This document shows positions 11,342-24,055 of a DNA stretch of 24,055 nucleotides, piece after piece. The stretch comes from a virus, in IMG/VR virus record IMGVR_UViG_3300048041_000062, positions 1 through 24,055 of that record; one strand, 5' to 3'. Within the stretch, counting starts at the first letter, position 1; each line of letters opens with the position of its first letter. The translations under genes were made by a program, and so were the position numbers. A model generated the notes under the pieces. It searched no databases. It was not told the origin of the DNA and worked only from the letters and a program-made list of their open reading frames with translations.

Positions 11342-11399
11342 ATTTTATTAACTTCCGTAGCTTGCATTCTATATTACATTTTACATATGTTATTTGCAT
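11331..11399 (-). CDS. Possible 22-residue ORF between primase and helicase
   Basis: MQITYVKCNIECKLRKLIKY starts at an ATG overlapping the primase stop (TAATG, 11401-11397) and ends inside the helicase start (TAA 11333-11331). It could be a coupling leader that carries ribosomes to the helicase start, or chance. No homology can be judged at this length. Confidence 0.2.
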   Translation of the reverse strand: MQITYVKCNIECKLRKLIKYGT

Positions 11400-12421
11400 T
11401 ATTTTTTGAACATCTTCCTTTTAATTCCAATTTGCAATTTACTCGTCGTTCTTGCAGCAATAGCACTTCGTAACGAAAAAAGTTTACCATATTTTCGTGA
11501 TGCATCAGCTGCATCTTTAACATCATCTTCCCATTCAGGAAAACTAACACACCAATCATTATCTAATGCAGCATCAATTAATCCTTGATTTTTACGTTGT
11601 CTGTCAGGTAATACTATCTTAGTCTTGTATGTGCTATTTAACCAGGCTATTTGTGCCTTGTTTAGTTCACTTCCTAATGTACCAATACATGATAGTGCTA
11701 TAGCATCAAATGGACCTTCAACTAATAATATAAACTCTCTAGTTGTATTATTAAGTATATCACAATTGAACAAATATCCTGGTTGCAATTCACTGTTAAA
11801 ATATCTAGGATTACCCTTAGGTGGAATACCTGCATATCTTGCTGTCCATCCAACTACTTTACCTGCTTGATAGAATGGGATAATTACCCTATTATTCATA
11901 CTGTATTTTGTTTTGGGGCTCCAATAATAATCCCATCCATTTGCAACTACATTACCTCTAGACATCATGTAACCGAATACATTCATAAATGATTCAGGTA
12001 TATCTTCTTCCTCAACCACACTTTCAAACGGCACGGCACCATCTGGTAAAGATATTTCATGAAATTCATTTGCAAACTTAATAGGTATATTGTCAATAAC
12101 TACGTCTATACCATTTATTTTGTTGGTTAATAACTCTAATTTGACTTTGCTTATATCTTCACGTGATATACCCATCCAAAACATTAATGATTCGAAACTT
12201 TCACTAAGCGACGTAGTATCAAATTTAGCTTTAAATCCGCAATTATAACAATTGTATATTATCACACCTGTATTTTGTATTAAGAAATTTCCACGAGATC
12301 GCGTATCGTGCCTATGACCTCTATGATGGCAACAAATTGAATTAAAATTTATCCATCCTAGTACACTTGTTTTGCGTCGCATTGGCAAATGTGCTGTAAT
12401 TAAATCATAAATTAAAGACAT
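11399..12421 (-). CDS. 61: DNA primase, T4 gp61-like
   Basis: A 340-residue protein. The N-terminal zinc-binding part has CCHHRGHRHDTR (Cys30/31, His32-36) and a second pair Cys58/Cys61 in YNCYNCGF, the layout of phage primases, although the first half is Cys-His rather than the usual Cys-x-x-Cys. The Toprim part has LLVEGPFDAIALSCIG with the catalytic-type Glu, and later IVLPDRQRKNQGLIDAAL, where family members usually have a DxD pair; here the third position is Gln. It makes RNA primers for the lagging strand with the helicase encoded immediately downstream. The adjacency of the two genes supports the call. The weakened acidic pair may be tolerated or a sequence error. Confidence 0.9.
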   Translation of the reverse strand: MSLIYDLITAHLPMRRKTSVLGWINFNSICCHHRGHRHDTRSRGNFLIQNTGVIIYNCYNCGFKAKFDTTSLSESFESLMFWMGISREDISKVKLELLTNKINGIDVVIDNIPIKFANEFHEISLPDGAVPFESVVEEEDIPESFMNVFGYMMSRGNVVANGWDYYWSPKTKYSMNNRVIIPFYQAGKVVGWTARYAGIPPKGNPRYFNSELQPGYLFNCDILNNTTREFILLVEGPFDAIALSCIGTLGSELNKAQIAWLNSTYKTKIVLPDRQRKNQGLIDAALDNDWCVSFPEWEDDVKDAADASRKYGKLFSLRSAIAARTTSKLQIGIKRKMFKK

Positions 12422-12495
12422 AACTTATTATAGTGCAAATTAATTTTTATACAATACCATTGACCATTTAAATAATTTATACTAAAATATATTTA

Positions 12496-13695
12496 ATGTT
12501 TTTATCATACAAATTTCGATTATATCCAACAGAAGAGCAAGAGGAAATTTTAATTTCTTGGTCTCATATCAATCGATATATTTGGAATTATTTTCTTGAA
12601 CAAAATATAGAAAAATACAATAAAGAGAAGAAATTTATATTCTTTTTTGAAATGAGTAAATTATTACCTAAATTAAAACAGTCACAACAATTTTTACAAG
12701 AAGTACCAGCATGCACTTTGCAACATACTTGCAAACAATTAGATATTACAATTAAAAGATCATATAAATTAAAATTGGGTTTTCCTAAATTTAAACCAAA
12801 AAAACAAAATAAATTATTATCTTTTTATATACCACAGACTAATAACCAAATTAAATGGACTAAAACAAATGTAATTATTCCAAAATTAGGTAAAATTAAG
12901 TGGAAGAAATCACGTAAACTAAAAGGAAAATTGAAATCAATTACTATAAAATATGAAGGTAATAATTGGTATTGTTCTGTATTAGTTGAATCAAATAAAG
13001 AAATAAAACCAATATTAGATCAAAATAATACAATTGGTATTGATTTAGGAATTAAAAATTTCATTATTACATCAAATAATGAAATTTTTAATTTACACCC
13101 TAAGTTATTCGAAAAAGAACAAAAAATAGATAGTGAGCAAAAGAAATTATCAAAAAAGAAAAAAGGAAGTAAAAACAGATTAAAACAAATTAAAAAATTA
13201 AGAGCAGCTTATACAAAAATAAGATTTGCAAGAATTGATAATGCACATAAGATAAGTACTTCGATAGCCAAGAAATACTCTGGTGTTGCAATAGAAGATT
13301 TGAATATAAAAAGCATGATGAAAAATCACAATTTATCTAAGAAAATATCTCGAGCAAGTTGGTATCAAATAATTCGATTATTAGACTATAAAACTAACGT
13401 AGTCAATGTAAATCGATTTTATCCCAGTAGTAAAATTTGTTCTCATTGTGGAAATATACAGAAAATACCTTTAAATATTCGAACATATGATTGTATTAAT
13501 TGTGGAATGTCAATTGATCGTGATCTAAATGCAGCAATTAATATAAAAAATATTACCTTTGTCAAGAAGGGAAATTACGCCTGTGGAGATGCCTCTAATG
13601 GGGATATAAATCAAATTATATCTAGTTATGTATCGTTGAATCAGGAAAAATTCGAGACAGATATTATTACTAATATCTTTGGCCTTGAATACTAA
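12496..13695 (+). CDS. tnpB: TnpB (IS200/IS605-type) RNA-guided nuclease, no TnpA
   Basis: A 399-residue protein of usual TnpB length. The N-terminal MFLSYKFRLYPTEEQEEILI is the family signature. RuvC-I is TIGIDLGIKNF (Asp183), RuvC-II is VAIEDLNIKSM (Glu267), and RuvC-III is SIDRDLNAAINI (Asp341/343). The four-cysteine zinc knuckle is C315-x2-C318 and C333-x2-C336. All catalytic and zinc positions are present, so an active enzyme is plausible. In this family the protein uses an RNA transcribed from its own 3' end to cut DNA next to a short motif. No transposase gene accompanies it. It faces away from the primase and runs into the structural-like gene at 13702. The gene is very A- and Lys-rich and has no clear ribosome site. 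Confidence 0.95.
   Translation: MFLSYKFRLYPTEEQEEILISWSHINRYIWNYFLEQNIEKYNKEKKFIFFFEMSKLLPKLKQSQQFLQEVPACTLQHTCKQLDITIKRSYKLKLGFPKFKPKKQNKLLSFYIPQTNNQIKWTKTNVIIPKLGKIKWKKSRKLKGKLKSITIKYEGNNWYCSVLVESNKEIKPILDQNNTIGIDLGIKNFIITSNNEIFNLHPKLFEKEQKIDSEQKKLSKKKKGSKNRLKQIKKLRAAYTKIRFARIDNAHKISTSIAKKYSGVAIEDLNIKSMMKNHNLSKKISRASWYQIIRLLDYKTNVVNVNRFYPSSKICSHCGNIQKIPLNIRTYDCINCGMSIDRDLNAAINIKNITFVKKGNYACGDASNGDINQIISSYVSLNQEKFETDIITNIFGLEY
13659..13678 (+). other. Hairpin at tnpB 3' end, candidate part of a guide-RNA scaffold
   Basis: AGATATTA (13659-13666) and TAATATCT (13671-13678) form a perfect 8-bp stem with a TTAC loop, within the last codons of tnpB. TnpB guide (omega) RNAs overlap the 3' end of the gene and carry hairpins near the element's right end, so this is where one would be expected. 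The element end and guide cannot be fixed from one copy. Confidence 0.4.
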
Positions 13696-13706
13696 TTAAA
13701 ATTAGT
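13691..13706. repeat. Inverted repeat across the convergent tnpB/structural gene ends
   Basis: ACTAATT (13691-13697) and AATTAGT (13700-13706) surround two bases and overlap both stop codons. It may be a 3' hairpin for either gene or part of the TnpB element boundary. It has no run of T long enough to call it a terminator. Confidence 0.45.
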
Positions 13707-14481
13707 TCTTGAACAATACCCTAAGAAATCTACCAGTATTGGAGATATCTGGTCTAAATATAAACCTTATCCAATACGCATTTATAGTAAGATTAAATGG
13801 TGCAGGACCACACCAATTATTAGTTCGATTAAATTCATAAAACTCAGTTGTAGGAGTCAATGGTATTCTGAACCATTGAGTTGGCAATGGTGCATCAACT
13901 GTTAAGCTTCCTTCTACCCAAAACTTACCAGTCCAATTTTCTTGATAAACAGCAATGCTATGCATTCCATTTGCTCTTCCAATTTGAGCATCTCCTGGGT
14001 ATGCGCCAGTTACCCAAATTGTATAATCGTATAAATCAACTGGGGTTGGAGTAAATTGATTTTCATATATCTCTATAGCAGGCTGTAGACTACTTACAAC
14101 CCCTTCCATTAATTCAAAACTACCAAATGTATTTTTGTCAACATCAGTATATAGATACTCGCCATTTTGTTCATCATCAAACATCTGTATTACATATCTA
14201 TAATATCCCGGAGACCAAGTATGAATATCATCATTATGTAATGTAAGTCTGGCTTTACCTTGCTGTTCATCAGTTATAGTACAATACTTCTTAAGTAGAA
14301 CTTCTGGTGAATTCATTAGTTTAACCGTAGGTCCAATACTCACACGGTCAGCTCGTTGTATCTGCGCCTGTAAAGTATTATTGAATAGCTTTATAGGTCG
14401 TCTGTCATTGTTTCTAATAATAAAATCAATGTTATTAGAAACACCTTTATATATTTTTGTGTTGTATTGAACGTTAGGCAT
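13702..14481 (-). CDS. Probable tail/baseplate structural protein
   Basis: A 259-residue protein from MPNVQYNTKIYKGVSNNIDF. I prefer the ATG at 14481 because AGGA (14490-14487) precedes it, whereas the ATG at 14559 coincides with the predicted late transcription start and would add 26 residues. The N-terminal part (KIYKGVSNNIDFIIRNNDRR, then LFNNTLQAQIQ) resembles the small beta-sandwich domain seen in phage baseplate and receptor-binding proteins. The rest is rich in aromatic residues and Asn (WSPGYYRYVIQMFDDEQNGE, GKFWVEGSLTVDAPLP), as in carbohydrate-binding tail parts. It ends against tnpB. The structural role is inferred. Confidence 0.7.
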   Translation of the reverse strand: MPNVQYNTKIYKGVSNNIDFIIRNNDRRPIKLFNNTLQAQIQRADRVSIGPTVKLMNSPEVLLKKYCTITDEQQGKARLTLHNDDIHTWSPGYYRYVIQMFDDEQNGEYLYTDVDKNTFGSFELMEGVVSSLQPAIEIYENQFTPTPVDLYDYTIWVTGAYPGDAQIGRANGMHSIAVYQENWTGKFWVEGSLTVDAPLPTQWFRIPLTPTTEFYEFNRTNNWCGPAPFNLTINAYWIRFIFRPDISNTGRFLRVLFKN

Positions 14482-14564
14482 GTTGATCCTATCAATCGTT
14501 GGGTCATATTTCACTAGACTGATGTATTCATGAAACTTGTAGAGAAAAATTATACTCATTTACT

Positions 14565-19107: not shown

Positions 19108-19200
19108 GATAAATATTGTTATGAAGTTTAGGTGCCGCAATTATGCGGACTTATGGGGTACCCACCTCGTAGCCCTAGAACGGCATAAAGGAGAAAACAA
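19108..19200 (+). promoter_or_regulatory. Late-promoter-like box and structured 5' leader
   Basis: GATAAATA (19108-19115) differs at one base from the late consensus. The leader of about 80 nt has a hairpin CCGCA (19135-19139) with TGCGG (19144-19148) around ATTA, and an outer pairing AGGTG (19130-19134) with CACCT (19163-19167). TGCCG (19133-19137) can instead pair with CGGCA (19181-19185), directly before the ribosome site AAAGGAG (19187-19193), which is 7 nt from the ATG. These pairings exclude each other in part, so the leader may control translation. Confidence 0.5.
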
Positions 19201-20304
19201 ATGGGACGACCGATTAATAATAATTATATAGGAAACGTAAATACTGCCGGCTATGTTATTACAGGTCAGGCATGGGTTGCAGGTGATAGTCAGCCGCGAC
19301 CATCTTACATTGTCAAGCAACGAGGCTCAACAAGTTATGTTATGGCCCCAATCGCTGGTAACGGTGTAACAGCAGGAGGCCAGGTTTATTTGGTCGATGG
19401 ACCAATATTGCAGGCTGGTCAAGGTAATATTAGTGTTACTCCATTCGGTGCCATTGGCAGTGGTGCCGTAGGAAATGCAAACGTAGGCGTAACTGGTGCA
19501 ACTGTAACAAACTCTGGTGCATTTAGTACTACAACTAGTTACAAGCCAGGTGAGATACTACATCTAGCTGGTGGTACTTACACTGGCAATGCTCAGGCAA
19601 ATGTTGTCGTTGATGCTGTTACTATACGCACCTTTGGAGTACAAGCAGGTGGTACAAATTATACATTAGGAGATTATTTCTTATTCTCAGGATCAGGTTA
19701 CAATCAATCAGCAAATTTGGTTGTAACAGCAGTATCTGGTGCCGTTGTTACTAACGTAACAATAATATCGTCAGGCCAATACACTGGTACCACATTACCA
19801 CCAAATGCGGTAACACCAACTTCACAAACAGTAACTAATACTAATGCATCAGGTGCAACGTTCAATTTTGGATGGGGCATTAGTATAATAAGTCCTGTAA
19901 ACGAAGGTGATTATAGCGCAGCACCATCTAGTCCAGCGGCAGTTACAGGAAGTGCAAACGGTACCGGTGCAACAATAACTCCAACGTATTCAGTGAGTTC
20001 ACTATATGTGAAAGCAACTGGATCAGGATACAACGGATCACCAATAGTTGAATTTAGTTCTGGCGCAGCAGCGGCTGTATCTGTAGTAAATGCTGCTGGT
20101 TACGTAACTGGTCTTACATTGCTTGATGCAGGTGCTAACTACGTTGGTAATCCAAACGTGTTTATAGTAGATACAGGAACTACCTTTAATCTGGCTAAAC
20201 TTACAGATTCATTAGCATATACATTTAATGGTAATAGTTATAAATGGGTATTAACAGGTGTTCCACTACAAGGACCAACTTTTGCTACTATCCAGAGCCA
20301 GTAA
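19201..20304 (+). CDS. Repetitive beta-rich virion protein
   Basis: A 367-residue protein, MGRPINNNYIGNVNTAGYVI, almost free of Lys, Asp and Glu and rich in Gly, Thr, Val, Ala and Asn. From about residue 110 it shows degenerate repeats in which a hydrophobic strand pair is closed by Gly-Tyr turns: GGTNYTLGDYFLFSGSGYN, then SGQYTGTTLPPNAV, GSGYNGSPIVEFSSGAAA and DAGANYVGNPNVFIVD. Such repeats build beta-solenoid or stacked-strand fibres and decoration proteins. It has a structured leader, a strong ribosome site and its own terminator at 20331-20383, so it is a single-gene late unit. The exact virion part is unknown. Confidence 0.75.
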   Translation: MGRPINNNYIGNVNTAGYVITGQAWVAGDSQPRPSYIVKQRGSTSYVMAPIAGNGVTAGGQVYLVDGPILQAGQGNISVTPFGAIGSGAVGNANVGVTGATVTNSGAFSTTTSYKPGEILHLAGGTYTGNAQANVVVDAVTIRTFGVQAGGTNYTLGDYFLFSGSGYNQSANLVVTAVSGAVVTNVTIISSGQYTGTTLPPNAVTPTSQTVTNTNASGATFNFGWGISIISPVNEGDYSAAPSSPAAVTGSANGTGATITPTYSVSSLYVKATGSGYNGSPIVEFSSGAAAAVSVVNAAGYVTGLTLLDAGANYVGNPNVFIVDTGTTFNLAKLTDSLAYTFNGNSYKWVLTGVPLQGPTFATIQSQ

Positions 20305-21458: not shown

Positions 21459-22178
21459 TTATGTGTAAGATATTTTGTCTAATTTACTATATAATCTAAT
21501 ATGTCGAGGTGTTTTATCAGGTAAATTACAATTAGGACATATCAGTCTAATATGAGGACTTCCTTGTTTTGGTTTAGATTGTTTTAATCTTGTTTCTAAA
21601 CTGTGTTTCTTTCCTAACATACCTGATGGTTTACCTAGTTTACTATTCGTTATTTGTTGTTTTATTAATTGAGCGCGCTCTTCACCAAATCGATCAGTAA
21701 ATGTCTTTCCTTTCAGTCTGATGCTTCGGGCAATTTTCATTTCTTCAGTAACTACTTGTGATCCTTTCTTTCCTTTATTCCACGGTATTCTACCTTTTCT
21801 GGTAATACTCATTTTATTTCGTGAATCAATGGTATGTTTCTGACCAGTTCTGGCTTCTATTATTGCTTTACGTGCTGATTCATATTGATGCGAAGTTAAT
21901 AATCTTCTTTGATTTCTATTACATTGAACAAATTTTCCTAATGCATGTTTCATTTTTATTTTATGAAAATTACTAATAACAAATTTTATTAGTAACTTAT
22001 GACAAATAAAATGTTCTCTTGCTGTTAATACAGCAATATTGTTTATAGAGTTATCACCATTCATACATTTTGGTATGATATGATGTTTCTCAACATATAT
22101 ATTTTTGTTAAGTTGTCTATTTTGTGCGTGATATATTATATTGAAATACCAAAGTTTGTATTTATTTTCTATAAACAT
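21459..22178 (-). CDS. HNH homing endonuclease with NUMOD3 motifs
   Basis: A 239-residue protein. Residues about 30-65 hold the HNH core: VEKHHIIPKCMNGDNSINNI, then AVLTAREHFICHKLL. Downstream lie NUMOD3-like DNA-binding repeats, RTGQKHTIDSRNKMSITRKG with PWNKGKKGS, and a second set, LGKPSGMLGKKHSLETRLKQ. A Cys-x2-Cys pair ends the protein (ICPNCNLPD). This layout is that of phage free-standing or intron-type homing enzymes, which nick or cut a target and spread by repair. It starts 3 nt after the UvsW stop. Residues 80-240 are very basic. It appears intact. Confidence 0.88.
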   Translation of the reverse strand: MFIENKYKLWYFNIIYHAQNRQLNKNIYVEKHHIIPKCMNGDNSINNIAVLTAREHFICHKLLIKFVISNFHKIKMKHALGKFVQCNRNQRRLLTSHQYESARKAIIEARTGQKHTIDSRNKMSITRKGRIPWNKGKKGSQVVTEEMKIARSIRLKGKTFTDRFGEERAQLIKQQITNSKLGKPSGMLGKKHSLETRLKQSKPKQGSPHIRLICPNCNLPDKTPRHIRLYSKLDKISYT

Positions 22179-22180
22179 GA

Positions 22181-24055
22181 TTAATAAGTAATTTTATTAA
22201 GTGTCCAGGGGTATTCCGCCGTGTCATAAAATTTTTTTCGTTTAAGCATATGTTTATTAGAAAACTTACATTTACTAGAAATATCAAACACTGATATTGC
22301 GTCTTTGTCATCTGCCTTACGTAATCCTCTACCAATACTTTGTATCACTCTTACGAAGCTTTTCCCGGGTTCAACTAGCACAAGATTGAAAATTCTATTA
22401 ATACTAATACCAGTTGATGTGGTGCCATACGTAGCAACCATTATAGCATTATTATCTAAGTTAATATCTTTATAATGTTCTTTACGATCAGTTGCTTTCA
22501 TTTTGCCACTAATGAAAACACATTCTGGTATCAATTCTTGTAAAATTTTGCCAGTCTCAATACGATCAATTAGAATTAATGTATTGCCAGTTAATGCTAT
22601 ATCTTTGATCATCTTAGCTAACCAAGCTAATCGTATTGGATTAGTAACTAGATATTTTAATTCTTCTGGATAAGTTCTATACACTACTGTCTCAGTTGTT
22701 TGTATCATATTAACATGACATTGTGCCAAATGACCAGCATCTTGTAATTCTTTAGCTGTTAGATTTCCAATAACAGGTCCTATAGCACTATACAAACTTA
22801 CCTGATTATATTCTTCTTCAGGTATAGTCCCTGTTAATCCCCACCTAATTGGAATACCTGCAAACGTAGTCGTTAACAACGTATGAATTACATTGGTGTT
22901 CTTAACTAGATGAACTTCATCACAAATAACTGCTACGATGTTATCCATAAACACTTCAAATTGATTTTCGTCTAGTGCATCTTTATTCTTTTTATCTAAT
23001 ATATTTAGACTCTGCCAAGTGCATATTGTATGCGTCTTGTTATATTCTTTTCTATCTCCGTATAATACACCTACATCTAATCCTATGTTGCGATAGTCTT
23101 CTTCTGTTTGTTGGACTAAATTTTTGTTCGGGACGATAATTATTGTTCTACCATATTTTTGTGCTATCATACTTAATGATGCGGTAACAATAGTATTATG
23201 AGTAACTACAAATTCATCTGTCACATATAAATGATCTGGATGATCAATCATAATGCATCTAACTGGTTCTGTTGATACCTTTTTAATATCAATTATATTT
23301 AATAATGCTTTTCTTGCCAAACCAAATAACTTATTATTAGCTACTCGTTTAATTCTTTTTTCTATTAATTGTAATTTTCTAGGAAGAGTTACTAAAATAG
23401 ATGGAGTTGGATGATAAACAGATACATTATAGCAATCTTTGCAAGGAGTTACAACTCCTTTATATTTATATGTTCTATTTTTTCCATGCGTATGTCTGGC
23501 TATACCACCAACACTTCGTATTAAATATGCAAAATCTTCAGCAAGTTGTTTACTTGTAGTAGTAAAACTAATGCAACCTCTTTGATTAACATATCCATCA
23601 GTATCTAATAAACCTTGTATCATTTCAATACGCTGGTGATATCCAGCATTAAGATACATCTGAGGTACAAATTTGGTATGACTATATGTACCTTTTAATC
23701 CTAAGTCATTGATTATTGCTTTATATTTATGATAAGTAGGATAAGGTAAACCTTTTACTAATTTACCATTTTGATTTTTTGGATGAAGTTTCATCCAATT
23801 CGATCTTGCAACCGCATGTATTTTAGGTGTTTTAAACTTAAATGAATAATCATAATTATTATTATGATGTAAAATATAAGCATTATCTAATAATGATGAT
23901 ATCTTATCTAAAATAAATTGGTCAGCTGAGCTGATACCAAAATTCTCTCTAAATGATCCATCACCTAATAATGCACCTAACAAATATGGATTCATAGGTA
24001 GATCAATATTAGTATTATCAAATTTCATAGATGCTAATGGGATAGATATAGCTCG
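22181..24055 (-). CDS. uvsW: UvsW-type DNA helicase interrupted by an intein, N-terminus outside window
   Basis: The frame is open to the right edge; the ATG at 24028 is an internal Met of the intein, since codons upstream of it are also open. The host protein resumes at Thr (codon 23194-23192) after the intein's closing HN. It then shows TIVTASLSMIAQKYGRTIII (after the Walker A Lys), the DEVH box (VICDEVHLV), LTGT, LILIDRIETGKIL, and motif VI QSIGRGLRK. These are superfamily 2 helicase motifs in UvsW order. UvsW unwinds R-loops and branch-migrates recombination intermediates during T4 replication. The residues before the insertion (first part of Walker A and N-terminal domain) lie outside the window. 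It is followed directly by an HNH endonuclease gene. Confidence 0.9.
   Translation of the reverse strand, partial: RAISIPLASMKFDNTNIDLPMNPYLLGALLGDGSFRENFGISSADQFILDKISSLLDNAYILHHNNNYDYSFKFKTPKIHAVARSNWMKLHPKNQNGKLVKGLPYPTYHKYKAIINDLGLKGTYSHTKFVPQMYLNAGYHQRIEMIQGLLDTDGYVNQRGCISFTTTSKQLAEDFAYLIRSVGGIARHTHGKNRTYKYKGVVTPCKDCYNVSVYHPTPSILVTLPRKLQLIEKRIKRVANNKLFGLARKALLNIIDIKKVSTEPVRCIMIDHPDHLYVTDEFVVTHNTIVTASLSMIAQKYGRTIIIVPNKNLVQQTEEDYRNIGLDVGVLYGDRKEYNKTHTICTWQSLNILDKKNKDALDENQFEVFMDNIVAVICDEVHLVKNTNVIHTLLTTTFAGIPIRWGLTGTIPEEEYNQVSLYSAIGPVIGNLTAKELQDAGHLAQCHVNMIQTTETVVYRTYPEELKYLVTNPIRLAWLAKMIKDIALTGNTLILIDRIETGKILQELIPECVFISGKMKATDRKEHYKDINLDNNAIMVATYGTTSTGISINRIFNLVLVEPGKSFVRVIQSIGRGLRKADDKDAISVFDISSKCKFSNKHMLKRKKFYDTAEYPWTLNKITY
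23195..24055 (-). mobile_element. Intein with LAGLIDADG-type endonuclease in the UvsW Walker A motif
   Basis: Visible intein parts in order: DOD endonuclease motif one NPYLLGALLGDGSF, a linker, motif two IEMIQGLLDTDGYV, and the C-terminal splicing block HLYVTDEFVVTHN, whose final His-Asn is followed by Thr. The two Asp of the LAGLIDADG motifs are present. Thr fits the +1 splicing residue and the last Walker A position, so the insertion point is between Lys and Thr of GKT. The N-terminal splicing block (first Cys or Ser) is outside the window. Splicing should restore active UvsW. Confidence 0.88.

What the first reader, a model, noticed from the sequence alone, without database searches (positions are those of the whole stretch)
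12496..13706. Intact lone TnpB nuclease in a phage, with hairpin at its 3' end
All RuvC residues and the zinc knuckle are present, and there is no TnpA. It sits between primase and a structural-like gene. An 8-bp hairpin lies at 13659-13678 where a guide-RNA scaffold would be expected. It may act as a homing element or as a weapon against competing phages or plasmids.
Basis: partly seen in the sequence, partly recalled or inferred. Interest (0 to 1): 0.68.

Follow-up and report, generated by a model that had tools for sequence, protein, structure and literature searches.

The report
Stranded TnpB nuclease in phage gene tail
A jumbo phage carries an intact RNA-guided cutter (TnpB) from a jumping gene; it landed in the last codons of a virion gene, has lost its jumping ends, and the virion gene has a working substitute tail, so it may now act only as a homing-type cutter against phages without the insert.

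Summary
ORF 12496-13695 is a full-length TnpB (Pfam above cut-off; aligns end to end with ISDra2 TnpB; D183/E267/D343 and four zinc cysteines present), with no TnpA in the 24-kb record. It is an insertion: in about 60 related phages the structural gene and primase lie close together (mostly 8-75 bp), and none of ~95 related loci has a TnpB. New here: the insertion broke the 3' end of the structural gene. The displaced original tail (VLYKN*) survives as a 'ghost' beside the primase (12440-12458), and the gene now ends in a substitute tail (VLFKN*, 13702-13720). The ghost holds TTTAT, the motif flanking related elements, directly before ACAATACC, where the guide would start. The left transposon hairpin is gone. 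So this is an immobilised IS605-derived TnpB, plausibly still a self-sparing RNA-guided nuclease, but expression and cutting are unshown and decay is a serious rival. Lone TnpBs are common in phages. Four other viral loci show displaced gene pieces on the guide side with an intact diverged copy opposite, hinting at RNA-guided intronless homing.

The parts
12496..13695 (+). tnpB, 399 aa, all RuvC and zinc residues present
12440..12458 (-). Ghost of the original 3' end of the structural gene (reads VLYKN-stop), 18 bp from the primase start codon
   Evidence: tail PSSM from 34 distinct relatives scores 19.1 bits here, second only to the real tail (21.2); next best 13.3, random 24-kb maximum 10.6 on average and 17.0 at most
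12446..12450 (+). TTTAT, candidate target-adjacent motif left over from the insertion site
   Evidence: same register as TTTAT/TTTAA left of related phage TnpB elements; direct reading
12451..12458 (+). ACAATACC, left copy of an 8-bp direct repeat (within a 22-bp imperfect repeat 12437-12458 / 13699-13720)
12459..12495 (+). Remnant left end: promoter-like TTGACC-17-TAAAAT (12460-12488), no left-end hairpin
   Evidence: sister L224 has a hairpin here. Promoter-like matches in the region are no more numerous than shuffles give
13580..13583 (+). 5' strand of omega-RNA core stem (CCTG)
   Evidence: covaries with 13642-13645 in relatives
13642..13645 (+). 3' strand of omega-RNA core stem (CAGG)
13650..13690 (+).
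13691..13706 (+). Weak terminal hairpin B (ACTAAT-TAAA-ATTAGT) where relatives have an 8-10 bp stem
13706..13712 (+). TTCTTGA where relatives have AGTTCAC; the region also encodes the substitute gene tail on the other strand
   Evidence: direct reading
13713..13732 (+). Predicted guide segment ACAATACCCTAAGAAATCTA, lying in the structural gene
   Evidence: inferred from stem-to-guide distance in relatives and from the ghost TAM register
13702..14559 (-). Virion structural protein gene, intact, with substitute tail VLFKN-stop (13702-13720)
   Evidence: phrog_14467
11399..12421 (-). DNA primase gene, next to the structural gene in relatives
   Evidence: phrog_47

Best explanation
An IS200/IS605-type tnpB element entered the last codons of the virion structural gene of a jumbo phage, at or near TTTAT. 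It then lost its left transposon hairpin (its TnpA-bearing relatives suggest an ancestor with TnpA) and its right end changed, so it can no longer jump by the usual route. The structural gene kept working because it acquired a substitute 3' tail; the old tail is stranded beside the primase. The nuclease ORF and most of the omega-RNA remain. If expressed, TnpB would carry a guide from the 3' end of the structural gene: the phage's own copy is spared because the insert separates it from TTTAT, while an uninserted allele in a co-infecting relative would be cut and could be repaired from the inserted copy (homing-like spread or exclusion). Shown: protein, insertion, ghost tail, loss of the left hairpin. 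Inferred: exact ends, TAM, guide, expression, cutting, homing.
For: Protein family and catalytic residues. Empty sites in about 60 relatives and no TnpB in ~95 loci; no TnpB in 14 related records, including 155-519 kb contigs and three complete phage genomes. Ghost tail 12440-12458 at 18 bp from the primase; many relatives' gaps are 19-22 bp. Sister TnpB L224 has left-end hairpin, strong terminal hairpin and AGTTCAC; eleven L113-type copies define the right end as AGTTCAC|guide with TTTAT/TTTAA on the left. The next closest TnpBs (L034/L035 groups) lie beside TnpA. Core-stem covariation CCTG/CAGG, CTTG/CAAG, CACG/CGTG, CAGG/CCTG, CCTC/GAGG.
Against: The terminal hairpin is weak and AGTTCAC is changed, which may abolish guide function. 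No sampled relative has a close guide match (best 14/20 with TTTAT). How the 8-bp repeat and the second tail arose is not explained. No RNA or activity data. The nearest empty-site relative is only ~60% identical in these proteins, so the ends are not exact to the base. The sister copy L224 is broken by two frameshifts, so decay happens in this clade.
Confidence: 0.5

Rival explanations
1. Decaying relic: an ordinary IS605-type tnpB insertion that has lost both ends and has no function; the ORF is intact only because the event is recent.
For: Left hairpin missing, right hairpin weak, conserved AGTTCAC changed; sister L224 frameshifted twice; phage CC_R7 carries 10 TnpB matches, several truncated; no TnpB elsewhere in the group.
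Against: 399 codons open in a ~24% GC stretch, all catalytic and zinc residues kept, core stem and accessory hairpin kept.
Confidence: 0.38
2. RNA-guided weapon against plasmids or unrelated phages, or a domesticated immune or counter-defence function.
For: Intact nuclease in a jumbo phage.
Against: The predicted guide comes from the phage's own structural gene, so only relatives of this phage would match; no second guide source was noticed. Nothing links it to a defence locus.
Confidence: 0.05
3. RNA-guided transcription regulator of the TldR type (nuclease-dead TnpB).
For: TldR proteins are phage-encoded TnpB derivatives (PMC13418256).
Against: All three RuvC acidic residues are present.
Confidence: 0.02
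4. A rival history with the same final anatomy: the TnpB came with a neighbouring piece of another phage's structural gene by recombination, and the two tails are natural alleles of two phages, not the repair of a broken gene.
For: Other phages in the group have tails spelled TTAGTTCTT like the right copy (L147, L153); in L201 the intact copy differs from the displaced one by 40% in protein.
Against: No donor sequence found.
Confidence: 0.3

Closest known systems
ISDra2 TnpB and IS200/IS605 elements (PMC8612924, 8bf8)
   Same: Protein family, catalytic residues, 3'-overlapping guide RNA, guide taken from right flank, T-rich motif on the left
   Different: No TnpA, no left-end hairpin, weak right-end hairpin, altered right terminus, host gene tail replaced
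tnpB-only IS605-type elements in phages (e.g. L224, Geobacillus virus E3, SPO1-like Bacillus phages)
   Same: Lone tnpB in a phage
   Different: Sister L224 keeps both end hairpins and appears simply to interrupt an ORF; the window lost the ends and the gene was restored
Free-standing homing endonucleases of T4 (SegF, SegG; intronless homing, PMC2988022)
   Same: Lone nuclease between conserved phage genes; would spread by cutting an allele lacking it
   Different: Here the nuclease is RNA-guided and the predicted cut site is next to the insertion; homing is not demonstrated
TnpB-driven gene drive of IS elements in plasmids (PMC11870625)
   Same: TnpB cuts the uninserted site and favours the inserted copy
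   Different: Plasmids and a TnpA-bearing IS607 element there; lone and immobilised in a phage here

Membership tests
TnpB (IS200/IS605 OrfB) | OrfB_IS605 + TNB (RuvC/zinc) domains over full length | tested here: met
TnpB (IS200/IS605 OrfB) | Catalytic D-E-D and four zinc cysteines | tested here: met
TnpB (IS200/IS605 OrfB) | omega-RNA at 3' end: core stem plus terminal hairpin ending AGTTCAC | tested here: inconclusive
   core stem and accessory hairpin met; terminal hairpin weak, AGTTCAC altered; no Rfam match
TnpB (IS200/IS605 OrfB) | RNA-guided DNA cleavage | not testable with these tools
   needs biochemistry
Mobile IS605-type element | TnpA (Y1) in cis | tested here: not met
Mobile IS605-type element | Left-end and right-end hairpins for TnpA | tested here: not met
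   no left hairpin; right hairpin only 6 A/T-rich pairs
Homing element | Empty site in related genomes | tested here: met
Homing element | Cuts the empty allele and is copied into it | not testable with these tools
   best guide match in sampled relatives only 14/20
TldR (nuclease-dead regulator) | Loss of RuvC acidic residues | tested here: not met

The most novel reading that the evidence does not exclude
Some lone phage TnpBs are natural RNA-guided intronless homing cassettes: the nuclease sits with an intact, diverged copy of the gene it targets on one side and the displaced original piece, serving as guide, on the other, so that it spares its own gene and cuts rivals' alleles. The window is a mirrored case in a virion gene; L113, L201, L202 and L050 are the other candidates.
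Probability: 0.25. Interest if true: 0.8.

Novelty: new variant of a known kind. Interest (0 to 1): 0.5.

Why it matters
TnpB is usually seen as a guardian of its transposon. A TnpB that cannot jump, sits in a conserved virion gene, and leaves that gene working would be a step from transposon nuclease to free-standing RNA-guided homing nuclease, and a simple test bed for how such nucleases drive competition between co-infecting phages. If it is only a relic, it still shows cleanly how a phage keeps a virion gene after an insertion.

Tried and rejected
Close relatives of this TnpB by single-protein search in viral and bacterial collections: none in viral contigs, two distant partial hits in bacteria. 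Rfam match for the 3' end: none. Simple DNA-repeat significance for the two tails alone was only moderate (4 of 300 shuffle pairs as good; z 2.1), so a tail profile from relatives was used instead. Generic flanking-repeat search in other TnpB loci gave many low-complexity or unrelated repeats and a noisy control; only hits starting at the element end were kept. In the matched control, shifted positions gave 5 hits in about 487 tests versus 4 in 92 at the true position (one of them, L057, a low-complexity repeat), so enrichment is suggestive, not strong. TAM-anchored guide matching in the left flank found L113, and L201 with TTTGT rather than TTTAW, amid chance-level scores. TldR and weapon readings rejected or down-weighted as stated. 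Structure prediction was not run because sequence alignment to solved TnpBs was sufficient.

Full report
The window is a 24,055-bp viral record. Its primase, DnaB-type helicase and virion protein match jumbo phages of the Atu_ph07, Phosso and PA5oct type. The ORF at 12496-13695 is TnpB by three Pfam models above cut-off, by phmmer to solved ISDra2 TnpB structures, and by conservation of the RuvC acids and zinc cysteines. No TnpA was found in the record.

It is an insertion. In relatives at roughly 30-62% protein identity the structural gene is followed by the primase, mostly within a few tens of bases, and none of about 95 loci carries TnpB there or nearby; the records of 14 relatives have none at all. 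Phosso has a different 1.65-kb ORF in the same gap. In the window the gap is 1,280 bp, holding tnpB on the opposite strand.

The insertion is not simply intergenic. Reading the flanks against 16 empty sites showed a second copy of the gene's 3' end next to the primase: 12440-12458 reads VLYKN-stop on the minus strand, the usual end in relatives, 18 bp from the primase start codon. A profile of the last 21 bases built from 34 distinct relatives scores 21.2 bits at the real tail (13702-13722) and 19.1 bits at the ghost (12440-12460); the next best place in the whole window scores 13.3, and random 24-kb sequences peak at 10.6 on average, 17.0 at most. The two tails share 8 exact bases, ACAATACC. 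So the insertion split the gene near its end, and the gene now uses a different tail, VLFKN-stop.

Element ends were inferred from relatives. Eleven copies of an L113-type TnpB at different sites share sequence up to AGTTCAC and diverge right after it, with TTTAT or TTTAA at the left junction of many copies. Across viral TnpBs, 56 AGTTCA sites near the tnpB stop have a perfect stem of at least 7 bp before them in 41% of cases, against 2.8% in shuffles. The sister of the window TnpB is L224 (about 65% identical over the C-terminal half; the pair has 99% SH-aLRT support), which has a left-end hairpin, hairpin A, a strong terminal hairpin and AGTTCAC, but a tnpB broken by two frameshifts. The next nearest TnpBs lie beside TnpA. 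Measured by the 7-nt spacing from stem to guide in relatives, the guide would start at 13713 (ACAATACCCTAAG), which is also exactly what follows TTTAT in the ghost tail. The two registers agree, but this remains an inference.

Is the architecture general? In 103 viral TnpB loci scanned by translated comparison, L050, L113 and L201 have, starting at the element's right end, a piece of a gene whose intact but diverged copy lies on the other side of tnpB; L202 shows it by eye. L113: MNNEYTPDKWLVVKIEGEEFPLT versus MKQYTPDKWLVIKIEGGDFPLT, with TTTAT before the diverged copy. L201: the first ~48 codons of a putative RNA ligase gene (named from its sequence, not tested) at 60% identity. L050: CxNDKSLTLKLYK with mostly silent changes. 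The shifted control gave 5 hits in about 487 against 4 in 92 (one low-complexity), so this is a lead, not proof. It would fit RNA-guided intronless homing, by analogy with T4 SegF/SegG (PMC2988022), with the diverged copy resistant to the guide.

Function. The self-sparing geometry follows from sequence if the inferred guide is right; expression, guide production and cutting are not shown. No sampled relative has a good target (best 14 of 20). Decay is nearly as likely as function. The library searched holds papers on IS605 TnpB, plasmid gene drive by TnpB (PMC11870625) and TnpB in megaphages (PMC12607003), and I found none describing this gene-tail arrangement, but the library is incomplete.

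Noticed in passing
window 13050-13093: A perfect 19-bp inverted repeat with a 6-nt loop inside the tnpB RuvC-I coding region; as RNA it folds far better than shuffles (z -6.7, 0/200). Purpose unknown; some T4 homing genes carry terminators inside their coding regions (PMC2988022), but this stem is almost all A/T.
   Followed up: partly
window 19134-19203: Rfam freshwater-2 cis-regulatory RNA (55.7 bits, above gathering score) directly before the start of the ORF 19201-20304.
   Followed up: no
window 21459-24028: A LAGLIDADG (intein-like) block at the start of a ResIII-type helicase ORF, directly followed by an HNH/NUMOD3 endonuclease gene: two more homing-type elements in the same 24 kb.
   Followed up: no
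L006, L008, L009, L180, L183, L184, L192, L193 (dnaB gene): In related phages the DnaB helicase match breaks at residue 344; in L006, L008 and L009 an insert of about 1.7 kb follows before the match resumes, probably an intein or intron.
   Followed up: no
L023 2341-3990: Sinorhizobium phage Phosso carries a different 1,650-bp ORF in the same structural gene/primase gap, so the site takes inserts repeatedly.
   Followed up: no
L113, L201, L202, L050: TnpB loci with a displaced gene fragment on the guide side and an intact diverged copy of the gene on the other side.
   Followed up: partly
L033 / phage PQ092953 (Campylobacter phage CC_R7): Ten TnpB matches in one phage genome, several truncated or with stops, suggesting repeated insertion and decay.
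   Followed up: no
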